Assembly (NCBI GenBank): GCA_029932675.1
Contig: JAOZPP010000001.1
Location: 1 to 64,000, forward strand
Reading direction: 5' to 3'
DNA length: 64,000 nt
Source: a bacterium
GTDB lineage: Bacteria > SM23-81 > DAOVCL01
The position numbers and the translations under genes were made by a program. The notes beneath the pieces were generated by a model. That model saw only the letters and a list, made by a program, of their open reading frames with translations, was not told the DNA's origin and did no database searches. Shown one piece after another: positions 40,018 through 48,031 of the stretch; within the stretch, counting starts at the first letter, position 1; the number at the start of each line of letters is the position of its first letter.

Positions 40018-43000
40018 TCATCTAATCAACACCATTTTCCTACTCTTTATCATCTTACCCCTATCACCTATCACCTGTAACCTACAAATGTATACCCCAC
40101 TGGCTACTGGTTTGCCCCAGCTATCCCTTCCATCCCAAAGGACCCGATAGTAACCAGGTTTTTGCTCTTCATCCACCAGCGTCCTCACCAGTCCCCCCAA
40201 TACATTATAGACCTTCAAACTAACGTGGATCGTGCTCGTAGCCCCTGCTCGTGAACCCCCAATGGCTGAGGGTTGGTAACGGTCTCCGGGTAACGAGTAA
40301 CGAATCACGGTTGTTGGATTAAAAGGATTGGGATAGTTCTGGGCAAGGCCAAATTCCTTAGGAAGATTGGCAGTTAACCCTTGGTTGTCCACCCCCTCCG
40401 GAGGCAAGATGATAAACGAAGAGTCACTTTCATCCATCCCCACATTCCCTGACCTGTCATAGGCCAAAATTCTGACGATACAGCTATCAGAAGTCAGACT
40501 ATCAGTAATCTCCCAGACAAATAAGGAATCAGCTACTACACCTCGAGCTATTGTATCCCCATAGGTCCTCCCTCCATCATAGGAGAGGAAAACACTCAGA
40601 CTCTCAATCCCTATATTGTCTTCAGCCTTAAACTTAATGGTATCCCTCTCCCCTACCCTCCACCTCTCCCCCCCATTGGGCACCAAAACCTGAACCTGGG
40701 GAGGGGTTCTATCCACTATGCTGAAAAAACCTTTGGTTTGGCCCTGTCCGCTGTTGTGCAGGAAATCATAAGCTACCACCCTCAACTGGCAGCTATCCGA
40801 AACAATATTGGGAACTTGCCATAGGTATGTGCTGTCACTGCCTTCAACGACTGCTATGGAGTCCCATTCCGTTTCTTCTTGGAATTTATAGAAAATGTGA
40901 AGTGTCAGGATGTCATTCTCATCTGTGGCGCTCCAGAGAATTTGGGTTTGAGCTCCACAGCTTAAAGTCTCGCCAGGCGATGGGGAATAGATGGTAACCA
41001 CAGGGCCTTTTGTGTCCACCAAGGTTGAGCCTTCGGGAGCATCGGTGAAGGCTTCCACATTCCCGGCGCTATCCTGGGCAATGGTCTGAAACCAATAGTA
41101 CCCATCTCCGCTATCGGCAGAAAAGTAAAAGGTGCTCCCTGATGCAGCCTCCCCGGAAAGTATCCAGTCTACCTCTTTCCACTTGTACTTGTAGAATAGC
41201 TGTATTTGGTAAATACCACTTGATGGTTGAGAATCCGTGGCTGCAAAGTGAATTTCAAAAAAGGAAGCATTAGAGGAGTCCGGAACCTCTGTCACCCAGG
41301 ATGTTGGGTTCACTCGATCCAGGAAGATGCTGTCATTTGCTACAGGGCTTAGATTGTCGGCAACATCCTTAACCTGGGCATATACCCTGCGCCAGCCATC
41401 ACCCAAGGAGGGGGAGAGAACAAACATCAAGGTGTCTTGGAGGGGGATCCACCCAGTAGAATTCATATTAAAGGAGGGATCCTCTGCCAGCCTTACTGAA
41501 TTGGGGTAACCACCATAACCAAGGGCAACAACTACGGTATCGCCGTTCGTGTATCGACTGGAGGAAGGGGGGCGGTTGGACAAGCTAATAGAACAAGATA
41601 GTCGATCAGTTTTCACCACCACCGAATCCTCAGCCAGGAAACTCCTCTCCTCCCAATTTCCCGCTGAATCCTCGGCAATCATCTCAAAGAGATAAAGCGT
41701 ATCGCCGGTAGCATTGAAAATAATAGGATTACCAGGGGAGGCACTACCATAAAGATGCCACTCCCCCCCCTTCTTCCTATAATAAAGCTTCACTTGGGCT
41801 ACACCGCTTGAAGGAGCTGGGTCGGAGTAGGTATAAGGAATTTGGAAATTGACCTGGTTGATATAATCTGGCAAACCGGAAACCTCAGCCTGTGGTGGTG
41901 CCTTATCTAAAAAAATGCTCTTGCTCAAAATAGAGCTTCTATTACCTGCTGGATCTCTCACTTGAGCAAAAACACTCCGCCATCCCTCGGCACCTGGAGT
42001 TAGAATATACAAGTAGCTTTCGGCTATATCGATCCACCCAGTCGAATTCACGGAAAAACTGGGGTCCTCAGCCAATCTCATCTGGCTCGGTGAACCGGTA
42101 TAGAAAAGGGAAAGGGCAAGGGAGTCGCTATTGGTAAACCGGGGTGAACCCGAACTTATGTCCCCCATTATCAGACTCTCCAGCACAGGAGCCGTAGTAT
42201 CTACAACCACGGAATCCTCGGCCTCAAAGATCTGGTTCTCGATGTTGCCCGCCGAATCTTCCGCCACCACCACAAAGAAGTAGGTCCCCTCCCTCCCTGA
42301 ATGGAAAGAAAAGCTCCCATCAGGGCTCTCAGTTCCATAACTTACCCAACCCTCACCATTCTTCTTATAGAAAAGCTCCACTTGGGTCACACCACTTGAA
42401 GGATATGGATCGGAATAGGTATAGGGTATCTGAAAAGAGAGGGTATTAATATAATCAGGCAACCCTGAGACCTTGGCCTGCGGTGGAGCCGTATCCAAGA
42501 AGATACTCTCGCAAACCACCTGACTCGTGTACCCTAGAGAATCTCGCAACTGGGTATAAATCTCCCTTAACCCATCCCCAGAAGTGAGCATATAGGATAA
42601 TTCAGGAGTGAGCTCTTGCCAATCTGTGGAATTAATGGAGAAGAGGGCATCCTGTGCCAATCTCATCTCAGTTATGCCCCCTTTATACTCCTCTATCTTG
42701 ACCCTCACTGATTCTTCGTTGGAGTATTTGGGAGAACCGGAATCCAGGTCCTCTAAGGTAACTCTTGTTAAGGTTAGCACTGTATAGGAAGGTGACTCTG
42801 GAGAGAGGGGTCCAACATTACCAATAGAATCTACTGCCGCTACCCGCACCTTATAGGTGTGGCCTCGTAAACCCTCTATGGAAGAACAAGTATCCGTCGC
42901 TGTTGCCACCTCTACATACTCCGAACTATCAACTGATTCGTAAATGTTATAGTGATCCACTGGTGATCCTTGAGTAGGAGGTGACCAACAGAAGCCAATA

Positions 43001-45636: not shown

Positions 45637-45767
45637 CCTTTTGCCACAGAAAGTGAAATATTTCAGAGAAAGTTGGACTTTTTAGGGCTTTTAAAATGTT
45701 GTGGTTCCCTAACGCATAACGCAGGATTTTTATTCGGTGACCTTCGGTGCTGAATGAATGTTATTTA

Positions 45768-45793
45768 CCCTGTTCATCCTGTCAATCCTGTCT
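45768..45793. repeat. Dispersed 'CCTGTTCATCCTGTCAATCCTGTCT' repeat copy
   Basis: A near-consensus copy, preceded by 'CCCTAACGCATAAC' and 'TTCGGTGCTGAATGAATGTTATTTA' blocks. The same order of blocks recurs at 57507-57577, so the conserved unit is about 90 bp, not just the short tandem part. It lies in the 45637-45843 gap between epsI and the exosortase gene. Confidence 0.6.
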
Positions 45794-45843
45794 AAAAATG
45801 GAAGTTCTCACGATTTAAGGTTCAAAATCTACAAAATCTGCGG

Positions 45844-46680
45844 TCATCTGTGTTCTTCAGTGGCAGTCTTCCCCTTTAAGATAGCCCCAAATATAGCTAA
45901 CAAAATCAGGGAAAAGGCAAAGACCGTAATCCCGGAGAATTTATGAAAAAAGCCCTCTGCCATCTCTCTTCCAAAAAGATGTGAAAGAACCCCGGTAAGG
46001 GAGATTCTCGCTATGTTGGCAGCAATGGCTATAGGGATAGTAAAAAGAAATAGAACCGCTCTCTTCCAAAGAATCTTCTGATGAAGATAAGAAAAGATGG
46101 CGCCAAGAGCCATCAATGAAATCAGAGACCTGAGCCCACTGCAGGCAGTTGCCACTTCCATAGTAAGATTAGGCAGATAGATGACATTCCCCTCCCTAAC
46201 GGCGGAGACACCAAGAGAGGAAAGAATTATCATCGATAATCTGCTGGCAAAAAGTTTAAGGGGAAGGGTGATTTGATTGTAGAGACTATCCGGGAAAGGG
46301 AAGAGGAAAACAAGATATAACCAGGGGAAAAGGAGCTCTGTGGTCATCTCTCTTCCAGTGAGCCAAAGGAGCAGTCCCCCTAAGACCATCAAGAAAGAGA
46401 TGTTTGTACCAGTTGAAGACCAGGTTAACGTGCTCAAAATATATAAAAGACAACCGAATATCAACACGGGTAACCCAAACTCCGCTGGATCATTTCCAAT
46501 GGATGATATTCTCCCTCTCTTTCGCCAGACGATAAAAAGGGAAATGGGAAGGATGAGAAAACCATGGGAGTAGTCAGGATCCCAATGCCATCTATCCACC
46601 AAACTAAAGAACATCGGATGATAGGCAAAGATCACCAAGAGAGAGATTAAAAATATTCTCCAGAATTTCTTTATAGACAT
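45844..46680 (-). CDS. Exosortase
   Basis: A protein of 278 aa with about eight membrane helices. The proposed catalytic triad of exosortases/archaeosortases is intact: Cys180 in 'EVATACSGLRSL', Arg225 in 'ANIARISL' and His246 in 'GFFHKFSG'. These integral-membrane transpeptidases cleave C-terminal PEP-CTERM-type signals and are linked to polysaccharide loci. EpsI lies next and a FemAB-like protein of the same system at 58341, but no PEP-CTERM protein is visible. The last codons and stop come from an 'ACACAGATGACCGCAGATTT' repeat, so the native C-terminus may have been replaced. Confidence 0.88.
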   Translation of the reverse strand: MSIKKFWRIFLISLLVIFAYHPMFFSLVDRWHWDPDYSHGFLILPISLFIVWRKRGRISSIGNDPAEFGLPVLIFGCLLYILSTLTWSSTGTNISFLMVLGGLLLWLTGREMTTELLFPWLYLVFLFPFPDSLYNQITLPLKLFASRLSMIILSSLGVSAVREGNVIYLPNLTMEVATACSGLRSLISLMALGAIFSYLHQKILWKRAVLFLFTIPIAIAANIARISLTGVLSHLFGREMAEGFFHKFSGITVFAFSLILLAIFGAILKGKTATEEHR

Positions 46681-46690
46681 TTCCTATGGA

Positions 46691-47225
46691 TAGGAAGGTG
46701 TTAGGTTTTAGGAAATAGCTTAGAGAAGACGGGTGATAGGTGTTAGGTGTTAAGTGGAGAGGCGATGCTCATCCTTCCATTTGAGCAAGGATTTCTCCAA
46801 TGCTCTCAGCATCTTTCCACACTCCTCGTAGGACTTACTCAACCTCTCGTATTGCCCCCTGGTCAAATAATCCTTGCGAAAAGCTATGAACAAGTGATGC
46901 AGAGTCTCTTGGAGCTCCCCAAGAGAACGATTTATCCCCTCCAAGTAGATATTTATGTGCTTGTTATTCCAGCCCTCAGCTAAATTAGCTGCTATGGAAT
47001 TAGAAGACCTTCTTATCTGCGATCCTAATTCATAAAGCTCAAACTTAGGGAACTTAAGAGAGAACTTGCTAATCTCCAAATGCAGATCACAAAGCCTTTT
47101 GTATACCTCCAAATCCCCAAAGCTCTCTATCTTCTTATTGTCTTTTACCTTAAACCTACCACCTTCCACCTTCTACCTTCTACCTTCTACCTATCACCTC
47201 TAACCTATCACTCACCTATCACCTG
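46691..47225. mobile_element. Candidate repeat-bounded element carrying a four-helix-bundle gene
   Basis: On the plus strand, 46691-46757 is built of AGGTGATAGG/AGGTGTTAGG-type units. 47146-47225 is built of their reverse complements (ACCTTCTACC, ACCTATCACC). The two arrays are inverted relative to each other and bracket one gene. The right array runs into the stop codon of the next gene (TGA in AGGTGATAGG at 47219-47221). Smaller copies occur at 40058 and 47420. Mobility is inference; no transposase is inside. Confidence 0.45.
46750..47169 (-). CDS. Four-helix-bundle protein (S23/bAvd-like family)
   Basis: A protein of 139 aa. From residue ~14 it matches the family first found in 23S rRNA intervening sequences: 'SFGDLEVYKRLCDLHLEI', 'LGSQIRRSSNSIAANLAEGW', 'YLEGINRSLGELQETLHHL', ending in a long basic helix. 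Members include the Avd accessory protein of diversity-generating retroelements, but no reverse transcriptase is near. The GTG start and first ~10 residues (MEGGRFKVK) are translated from the flanking repeat array, and the stop lies in the other array. Probably a nucleic-acid-binding pentamer or dimer; function unknown. Confidence 0.75.
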   Translation of the reverse strand: MEGGRFKVKDNKKIESFGDLEVYKRLCDLHLEISKFSLKFPKFELYELGSQIRRSSNSIAANLAEGWNNKHINIYLEGINRSLGELQETLHHLFIAFRKDYLTRGQYERLSKSYEECGKMLRALEKSLLKWKDEHRLST

Positions 47226-48031
47226 ATTACCACCATCCTTTTCGTCTTTCTCGCCTTTAACCTATCACCTACCACCTCTAACCTATAAAAATATACCCCA
47301 CTGCAAACCTCTTCCCCAAAATTGTCCCTTCCATCCCACACGACCCTATAATAACCCGGCTCCTTTTCTCCGTCAATCAGATCTCTCACCTTCTCTCCCA
47401 AGCTATTGTAAACTTTTAAGGTTATGGGTATGAGGTGAGAGGCGTTAGGTTCCCCTTTCACCTTAAACCTTTCACCTATCACCTGGGGGACGGTGTAGCG
47501 GATGGTGGTGGACGAATTGAACGGATTGGGGAAATTTTGACTTAGTGAAAATCTTTTAGGCAATTCTTTCCCTTGAGTCTCATCAACACCCGATAAGGTA
47601 GTATCAGGAGAGGCTTCAGACAATGGCCCCTCCACTCCATCTGAGTCCACAGCAGAGACTTTAACCCAATAGGTATGCCCGGCTGAGCCGACAATAGAAG
47701 ATATAGTATCATAAGCAATCTTTACGAACTTATAGCTCGTATCATTGTTTACATCTACCGCCCTATAGACCTTATAATGGTCAACAGGAGCCCCAGTTTT
47801 CGGAGGCGACCAGTGAAAAACAAGTGCATTTTCCTGCCCCAACGCAGAGGTGTTCCCAGGAGACAAAACAGAGTAGAGAACCACGATAGTCAGTAGAAAA
47901 AATGGCAACATCCGCAATTTTTGGGTCAATTTCCCCTCTCTCAAAAGTATAGCAGGAACAGGCATTAGGTTCGTGGACTGTTCCTTCCCTAACGCTTGGA
48001 TATTACTCGTCTTACGGACTCTTCTCCTCAT
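47219..48031 (-). CDS. Secreted fibronectin-III / FlgD-like C-terminal domain protein
   Basis: A protein of 270 aa with a long N-terminus: ~42 residues before a hydrophobic export segment ('MLPFFLLTIVVLYSVL'), so a later start is possible, although the first ATG has a GAGG box and lies 9 bp after the beta-helix gene stop. Residues ~72-150 are a fibronectin-III-like domain close to that of the 1023-aa protein ('HWSPPKTGAPVDHYKVY'). The rest is the FlgD/type IX sorting-like domain ('NFPNPFNSSTTIRYTVP', 'TLKVYNSLG', 'VVWDGRDNFG'). A 22-residue repeat-derived insertion and a repeat-derived stop codon disturb this domain. Confidence 0.75.
   Translation of the reverse strand: MRRRVRKTSNIQALGKEQSTNLMPVPAILLREGKLTQKLRMLPFFLLTIVVLYSVLSPGNTSALGQENALVFHWSPPKTGAPVDHYKVYRAVDVNNDTSYKFVKIAYDTISSIVGSAGHTYWVKVSAVDSDGVEGPLSEASPDTTLSGVDETQGKELPKRFSLSQNFPNPFNSSTTIRYTVPQVIGERFKVKGEPNASHLIPITLKVYNSLGEKVRDLIDGEKEPGYYRVVWDGRDNFGEEVCSGVYFYRLEVVGDRLKARKTKRMVVIR
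47420..47485. repeat. In-frame mini-element of the 'AGGTGATAGG' family
   Basis: The left arm GGTTATGGGTATGAGGTGAG and the right arm, reverse-complemented CAGGTGATAGGTGAAAGG, are inverted family copies. The 66 bp encodes 22 extra residues (QVIGERFKVKGEPNASHLIP then IT) in the loop between 'IRYTVP' and 'LKVYN' of the FlgD-like domain. The 1023-aa protein has its insertion in the same loop. Confidence 0.55.

What the first reader, a model, noticed from the sequence alone, without database searches (positions are those of the whole stretch)
46691..47225. Four-helix-bundle gene bracketed by inverted arrays of a degenerate 10-bp repeat
On plus, the left side has AGGTGATAGG-like units and the right side their reverse complements, so the gene is boxed by imperfect terminal inverted repeats. 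The gene's start codon and first residues are read from one array and its stop from the other. Smaller gene-less copies of the same family lie in two other genes. This resembles an autonomous/non-autonomous element pair in which the S23/Avd-like protein might be the repeat-handling factor. Four-helix-bundle proteins are known from rRNA intervening sequences and retroelements, but a role in spreading these repeats is my inference.
Basis: partly seen in the sequence, partly recalled or inferred. Interest (0 to 1): 0.75.

Follow-up and report, generated by a model that had tools for sequence, protein, structure and literature searches.

The report
Mobile gene cassette framed by heptamers
A small four-helix-bundle gene sits between two mirror-image arrays of a degenerate 7-letter DNA repeat; the same gene-plus-arrays unit, with a different 7-letter word in each gene lineage, occurs across the bacteria and jumps into genes, which links a protein of unknown function to unexplained heptamer repeats in Nostoc and Xanthomonas.

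Summary
The gene at 46750-47169(-) is a PF05635 protein (23S_rRNA_IVP/S23; Avd fold) between opposed AGGTNNN arrays. This is a general, apparently undescribed arrangement. In 77 testable loci from an independent scan of many phyla, 92% have inverted flank similarity above the 95th percentile of 568 control ORFs; direct similarity shows no excess, and the periodicity excess is at 7 and 14 nt (a few loci use 8 or 9). Each IVP lineage has its own word, co-inherited with the protein. The unit moves: in genome G057 four 97-99% identical copies lie in unrelated places, one splitting a ferritin gene that removal restores exactly, plus about 35-40 gene-less copies with the same ends. In Brevundimonas the aguA-aguB junction is empty in 14 loci read and filled in 14, by three IVP lineages with different words. 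IVP words match genome-wide heptamers (Nostoc, Xanthomonadaceae). I read it as a transposase-less mobile cassette whose pentameric protein probably recognises the repeats; that binding, and the mobilising enzyme, are inferred. No RT gene and no integron integrase were found in G057. Nearest known kind: S23-encoding intervening sequences of 23S rRNA.

The parts
46750..47169 (-). IVP/S23 four-helix-bundle gene (PF05635), 139 aa; GTG start and first residues lie in the right array, TAA stop at the edge of the left array
47144..47206 (-). gene-upstream heptamer array, 9 AGGTNNN units read on the minus strand
47211..47224 (-). outer 2 units of the upstream array, overlapping the TGA stop (47219-47221) of the neighbouring secreted-protein gene
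46732..46756 (+). gene-downstream heptamer array, inner part, inverted relative to the upstream array
46696..46712 (+). gene-downstream array, outer part, about 16 nt before the exosortase ATG
46691..47225 (-). approximate whole unit; as RNA on the gene strand the two arrays pair (54 pairs, -175 kcal/mol predicted) with the ORF in the loop
   Evidence: outer borders not fixed by an empty site
47254..47284 (-). gene-less array of the same word, in frame 21 codons from the end of a secreted-protein gene (RLEVVGDRLK)
47454..47484 (-). second gene-less array in the same secreted-protein gene (VIGERFKVKG)
40060..40083 (-). gene-less array of the same word near the 3' end of another long ORF (21 codons before its end)

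Best explanation
The unit is a minimal mobile cassette: an IVP (S23/Avd-fold) gene between two inverted arrays of a private degenerate heptamer. Shown here: the arrangement is the rule for PF05635 genes; the word is co-inherited with the protein; whole units are present or absent at one site; near-identical units sit at unrelated sites; gene-less derivatives with the same ends multiply in the same genome; arrays of the IVP's word are dispersed in several IVP-bearing genomes. Inferred: the IVP homopentamer binds the heptamers (one unit per subunit would explain a fixed period) in single-stranded DNA or RNA, pairs or synapses the two arrays, and so lets host replication/repair or a trans-acting recombinase insert the unit, often at gene junctions where reading frames survive. 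Transcribed arrays would form a long stem with the ORF in the loop, as in 23S rRNA intervening sequences.
For:: 77 independent loci, inverted-flank score median 42 v 18 in 568 control ORFs, 92% above the control 95th percentile, direct similarity no different (p=0.46), periodicity excess only at lags 7 and 14 among lags 5-15; in the genome set nearly all of 88 IVP-like genes carry arrays, most with different words, some of period 8 or 9; words are shared in about 1% of pairs under 40% protein identity and in 95-100% of same-context pairs over 70%. Brevundimonas aguA-aguB site empty or filled by three IVP lineages; L270/L271 have 94% identical aguB but 54% identical IVP and different words, L270/L273 have 80% identical aguB but 83% identical IVP and similar words. 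G057 copies, ferritin gene (PF00210, 129 bits) restored by taking out 504 bp, gene-less copies in 201-bp tandem; dispersed arrays of IVP words, 41 v 3 control (own genome), 776 v 0 (Nostoc), 45-282 in 11 of 12 Xanthomonadaceae genomes whose IVP word fits the pattern. G-rich upstream in 58 of 68, p=2e-9; fold as 2GSC and 2RLD (five chains each) and Avd 4DWL (TM 0.81); arrays pair as RNA.
Against: No binding of IVP to any repeat has been shown, and no transposition has been observed. The unit encodes no recognisable recombinase, so another enzyme must act. Some IVP units are old operon residents in the same context in related species (L147/L150/L203, L153/L199). A few PF05635 genes lack clear arrays (L003, L130, L350, L352). 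One IVP-less Xanthomonadaceae genome (G134) still has 76 array hits, so arrays can persist or spread without a detected IVP. In the window's own genome most gene-less arrays sit at one place in one domain family, so they may have spread with that domain.
Confidence: 0.6

Rival explanations
1. IVP is a passenger. The unit is a non-autonomous element whose ends are recognised by an unrelated recombinase or transposase, and the heptamer arrays are only its terminal repeats.
For: In G057 insertions have precise ends, no target duplication, a G at most left junctions, and tandem head-to-tail copies without the gene; gene-less copies multiply more than gene-bearing ones.
Against: The words differ between IVP lineages and follow the IVP, not the host; the same protein family is the common factor across phyla. 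No integron integrase above cut-off was found in G057 or G000. No larger copy encoding a transposase was found among the 110 G057 matches.
Confidence: 0.18
2. The arrays are RNA-processing stems or translation signals (G-rich upstream units act as Shine-Dalgarno sequences), grown by polymerase slippage. The unit moves only by ordinary horizontal transfer and homologous recombination, and dispersed heptamers are independent microsatellites.
For: Upstream arrays are G-rich; arrays pair as RNA; in Coxiella the rRNA IVS is cut out by RNase III and its heptamer number varies between strains (PMC4990558); slippage has been proposed for heptamers (cited in PMC4692102).
Against: Slippage does not explain why both flanks share a private word in inverted orientation, why the word goes with the protein lineage, insertion inside a ferritin gene, or gene-less copies with identical ends.
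Confidence: 0.15
3. The unit is a retroelement in which IVP works with a reverse transcriptase in trans, as Avd does in diversity-generating retroelements.
For: IVP has the Avd fold (homology of PF05635 and Avd noted in PMC10053308); a transcribed unit would form a structured RNA.
Against: No RVT_1 match in 7 of 10 IVP-rich genomes, including G057 with recent copies; no template/variable repeat pair was recognised; the unit has no RT gene.
Confidence: 0.07

Closest known systems
S23-encoding intervening sequences (IVS) of 23S rRNA genes (Leptospira, Coxiella)
   Same: PF05635/S23 ORF between complementary ends, about 0.4-0.5 kb, suspected mobile; Coxiella's IVS has GACAGAT heptamers directly before the ORF, in strain-variable number (PMC4990558).
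   Different: The window's unit is not in rRNA but at an intergenic junction; there are arrays on both sides, a private word per lineage, and gene-less dispersed copies.
Avd of diversity-generating retroelements
   Same: Same four-helix-bundle fold, TM 0.81 to 4DWL.
   Different: Avd model far below cut-off (31.6 v 80 bits); no RT needed; no template/variable repeat seen.
Heptamer repeats: GGGAATC of Xanthomonas and GGGGA(C/T)T of Anabaena (PMC4692102), STRR of cyanobacteria, TAACTGA of Beggiatoaceae (PMC4679880)
   Different: The papers read name no associated protein or spreading mechanism; PMC4679880 only speculates about a repeat-binding protein.
REP/RAYT and MITE/transposase pairs
   Same: One gene-bearing form plus many gene-less copies with the same ends (G057).
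   Different: The protein has no transposase signature; arrays are degenerate heptamers, not fixed terminal repeats.

Membership tests
PF05635 / S23 IVP protein family | matches the curated model | tested here: met
   93 v 33.8 bits; TIGR02436 87.3 v 24; fold as 2GSC/2RLD
23S rRNA intervening sequence | lies within a 23S rRNA gene | tested here: not met
   no rRNA in the window at Rfam gathering scores
23S rRNA intervening sequence | ends complementary, forming a stem around the ORF | tested here: met
23S rRNA intervening sequence | excised by RNase III | not testable with these tools
   needs RNA work
Diversity-generating retroelement | reverse transcriptase with the element | tested here: not met
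   Pfam names none in the tested neighbouring ORFs; the only RVT_1 hit of the own genome is on another contig, and RT is absent from 7 of 10 IVP-rich genomes
Diversity-generating retroelement | Avd equivalog score | tested here: not met
   31.6 v 80 bits
Insertion sequence or MITE of a known transposase | encodes or is paired with a transposase sharing its ends | tested here: inconclusive
   none encoded; in G057 no larger copy with the same ends; trans-acting enzymes not surveyed exhaustively
Insertion sequence or MITE of a known transposase | target-site duplication | tested here: inconclusive
   none in the G057 ferritin copy; Brevundimonas lineage A shows none, L270 a possible imperfect 13-nt one
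Integron cassette | attC core pair and integron integrase | tested here: not met
   G057 junction G|TT resembles a core site, but I saw no partner core in the unit and no integrase above the 265-bit cut-off

The most novel reading that the evidence does not exclude
IVP proteins form a separate kind of mobile system: each lineage recognises its own degenerate heptamer, copies or inserts its own unit and, separately, seeds gene-less arrays of that word through the genome, so that the enigmatic heptamer repeats of cyanobacteria, xanthomonads and many uncultured phyla are the footprints of IVP elements and rRNA intervening sequences are the special case that landed in rRNA.
Probability: 0.4. Interest if true: 0.93.

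Novelty: new variant of a known kind. Interest (0 to 1): 0.84.

Why it matters
PF05635/S23 proteins have been known for decades as ORFs of unknown function in rRNA intervening sequences, and heptamer repeats in Nostoc, Xanthomonas and other bacteria have had no agreed origin. A strong association of the two across the bacteria, with the word following the protein, makes both questions directly testable with a small protein of solved fold and a 50-nt oligonucleotide. If the protein drives spread, it would be a very small mobility system with changeable sequence specificity and no known nuclease, and it would explain array-encoded stretches in proteins.

Tried and rejected
A 10-bp unit (period is 7). 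Chance repeats (2000 shuffles). RT-dependent Avd-like mechanism. Integron cassettes for the G057 tandem copies (no integrase above cut-off; I saw no second core site). An empty site for the window's own locus (G001-G003 gave only dispersed repeats). Period as a clean marker of protein clade: 12 of 110 assigned loci have period 8 or 9, several of them in one clade, but 11 changes on the tree, only weak clustering. Perfect hairpin conservation: unit order is mirrored beyond unit-shuffles in only 21 of 60 loci, so the arrays share a word rather than being exact palindromes. Broad alignments A1 and A2 could not be used for the genome scan. Open-access literature (8 searches) gave no paper that ties PF05635 to flanking heptamer arrays in general; subscription papers and recent preprints are not covered.

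Full report
Observation. The gene at 46750-47169 on the minus strand encodes a 139-aa PF05635 protein (93 bits against a cut-off of 33.8; TIGR02436 87 bits). It lies between the stop codon of a secreted-protein gene (47219-48031, FlgD_ig/CHU_C-like C-terminus) and the start of an exosortase gene (45844-46680), all on the minus strand. Read on that strand, the upstream flank is AGGTTAGAGGTGATAGGTAGAAGGTAGAAGGTAGAAGGTGGAAGGTGGTAGGTTTAAGG and the downstream flank CACTTAACACCTAACACCTATCACC...CCTAAAACCTAACACC: an AGGTNNN heptamer array and its inverted counterpart. The period is 7, not 10. Eleven heptamer-spaced core pairs in 535 bp compare with at most 2 in 2000 dinucleotide shuffles.

It is a general arrangement. 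The own genome has six PF05635 genes, and at least four of the other five are flanked by inverted arrays of other words: GAGCGAG/GAGTAAT, AAATGGA/AAATAGA, AAGAATT, CCTAAAT. Among 88 IVP-like genes from the own genome and 60 relatives, nearly all have such arrays, mostly of period 7, some of 8 or 9, most with different words. I then tested an independent set of 80 loci found by an A3 scan of genome contigs, from Planctomycetota, Chloroflexota, Proteobacteria, Bacteroidota, Cyanobacteria, Acidobacteriota, Patescibacteria and one archaeon. In 77 usable loci the similarity of the left flank to the reverse complement of the right flank had median 42 against 18 for 568 control ORFs in the same loci; 92% exceed the control 95th percentile (p=4e-39). 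Direct similarity does not differ (p=0.46). Excess periodicity is confined to lags 7 and 14 among lags 5-15. The coding-strand upstream array is G-rich in 58 of 68 loci with a skew (p=2e-9). In 48 of 67 testable loci the upstream neighbour, and in 48 the downstream one, is on the same strand.

The word goes with the protein. Over 157 loci, words are shared in about 1% of pairs below 40% protein identity, and in 95-100% of same-context pairs above 70%; at 60-69% identity in different contexts it is 25%. The cleanest case is one site in Brevundimonas (aguB confirmed). Of 30 loci read at the aguA-aguB junction, 14 are empty (GGAGCCCGCATGACC or a close variant), 14 hold an IVP unit and 2 hold another gene. 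The filled ones carry three IVP lineages with their own words: GAGTGGC (6 loci), GTGAGCAAG/GAGTAGT with shared outer ends GGTGAAAAGTGCTAGTGAG (5), and AGTGATT/AGTGGTT (3). L270 and L271 have aguB 94% identical but IVPs 54% identical with different words; L270 and L273 have aguB 80% identical but IVPs 83% identical with similar words. So gene and arrays come and go as one unit. In lineage A the arrays are read as protein: the IVP starts MSGEWRVASGEV and the downstream aguB gains MTSLATRHSPLATS.

The unit moves. Genome G057 has four IVP units 97-99% identical at unrelated places. Their common ends are TTAAGCGC... and ...GTGAATACAAGACG. One copy lies inside a ferritin gene; joining the flanks restores an uninterrupted ferritin (PF00210, 129 bits) exactly, with 504 bp removed and no target duplication. 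The same genome holds roughly 35-40 gene-less copies (count read) with the same two ends, many in 201-bp head-to-tail tandem with exact junctions AAGACG|TTAAGCGC. No longer copy with these ends was found, so IVP is the only recognisable protein the family encodes.

Dispersed arrays match the IVP word. AGGTNNN triples: 41 in the own genome against 3 for the reversed pattern. GGGGANT-type triples: 776 in a Nostoc whose IVP L317 has the word GGGGAGT, control 0. In Xanthomonadaceae the IVP words are GGGACTC, GGGACCC, GGGATTC and GGGAATC. GGGANNC arrays number 45-282 in 11 of 12 genomes whose IVP word fits (13 in G178, whose array is mixed), 2, 7 and 12 in IVP genomes with other words (G169, G276, G129), and 0, 76, 0, 0 in four genomes without an IVP match. 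Published heptamers GGGAATC (Xanthomonas) and GGGGA(C/T)T (Anabaena) are described as of unknown role (PMC4692102); the one solved xanthomonad IVP is X. campestris XCC0516 (2GSC). The Coxiella 23S rRNA IVS has three GACAGAT heptamers directly before its S23 ORF, in strain-variable number, is excised by RNase III, and has been suspected to be mobile (PMC4990558). I take rRNA IVSs to be the same kind of element in another place (inference).

In the window's own genome the gene-less arrays need care. In most cases they lie exactly 21 codons before the stop of their ORFs. The C-terminal end exists in the same genome in a 20-residue form without an array (YFYRLEAGNFCQVRKMVLLR) and a 24-residue form written by the array (YFYRLEVKGDGFEVTRTRKMVLLR). 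Arrays therefore appear to have entered coding sequence in frame, but they may have spread by copying of the domain.

Mechanism. The predicted fold (pLDDT 96.7) matches 2GSC (TM 0.9) and 2RLD, both with five chains per entry (the X. campestris protein is a homopentamer per PMC4990558), and Avd 4DWL (TM 0.81). My leading explanation is that the pentamer recognises the heptamers, one per subunit, in single-stranded DNA or RNA, and brings the two arrays together, so that the unit or a bare array is inserted by host replication/repair enzymes or a recombinase in trans. The predicted RNA of the window unit has 54 pairs between the arrays with the ORF inside, and flank pairing exceeds that of GC-matched mispaired flanks in the 77 loci. 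Steps shown: architecture, co-inheritance, presence/absence, mobility (from copies at unrelated sites), gene-less copies. Steps inferred: binding, synapsis, the enzyme. An RT is not required: no RVT_1 in G057 and six other IVP-rich genomes. Integron integrase was not found above cut-off.

Novelty. Protein, fold, rRNA IVS and heptamer repeats are each known. I found no paper in the open-access library that joins them (8 searches); subscription papers and recent preprints are not covered. I file the unit as a new variant of the S23-IVS kind, outside rRNA; the reading as a separate kind of word-specific mobile system is open at about 0.4.

Noticed in passing
L295, L297 (Brevundimonas aguA-aguB junction): In two genomes the same junction holds a different small gene without heptamer arrays, so the site may be a general insertion hotspot.
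   Followed up: no
window 45689-45870: A dispersed repeat (ACACAGATGACCGCAGATTTTG...) after the exosortase gene recurs about 20 times in the same-genus genome G001; it looks like another degenerate short-repeat family.
   Followed up: no
G000:C55 (L001/L002): Two IVP units with different words lie about 0.5 kb apart beside a CRISPR repeat (Rfam CRISPR-DR7).
   Followed up: no
G011 (L057, L105-L107): One genome has 19 short PF05635-like matches, mostly in oppositely oriented pairs a few hundred bp apart, a different layout from the single units.
   Followed up: partly
G057:C5:158245-159441 and others: Gene-less 201-bp units form exact head-to-tail tandem arrays, as if inserted repeatedly at their own end or made from circles.
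   Followed up: partly
L178, L200: In two Chromatiaceae, IVP units with different words sit directly upstream of the same gene, which looks like a BREX brxL (my reading of the sequence); L180 and L193 likewise both lie between carA and carB (my reading) with different words.
   Followed up: no
L048 and L077 (G057): Another repeat family (TCATCTCATCTCAAAGAGATCCC...) lies downstream of two further IVP units in G057.
   Followed up: no
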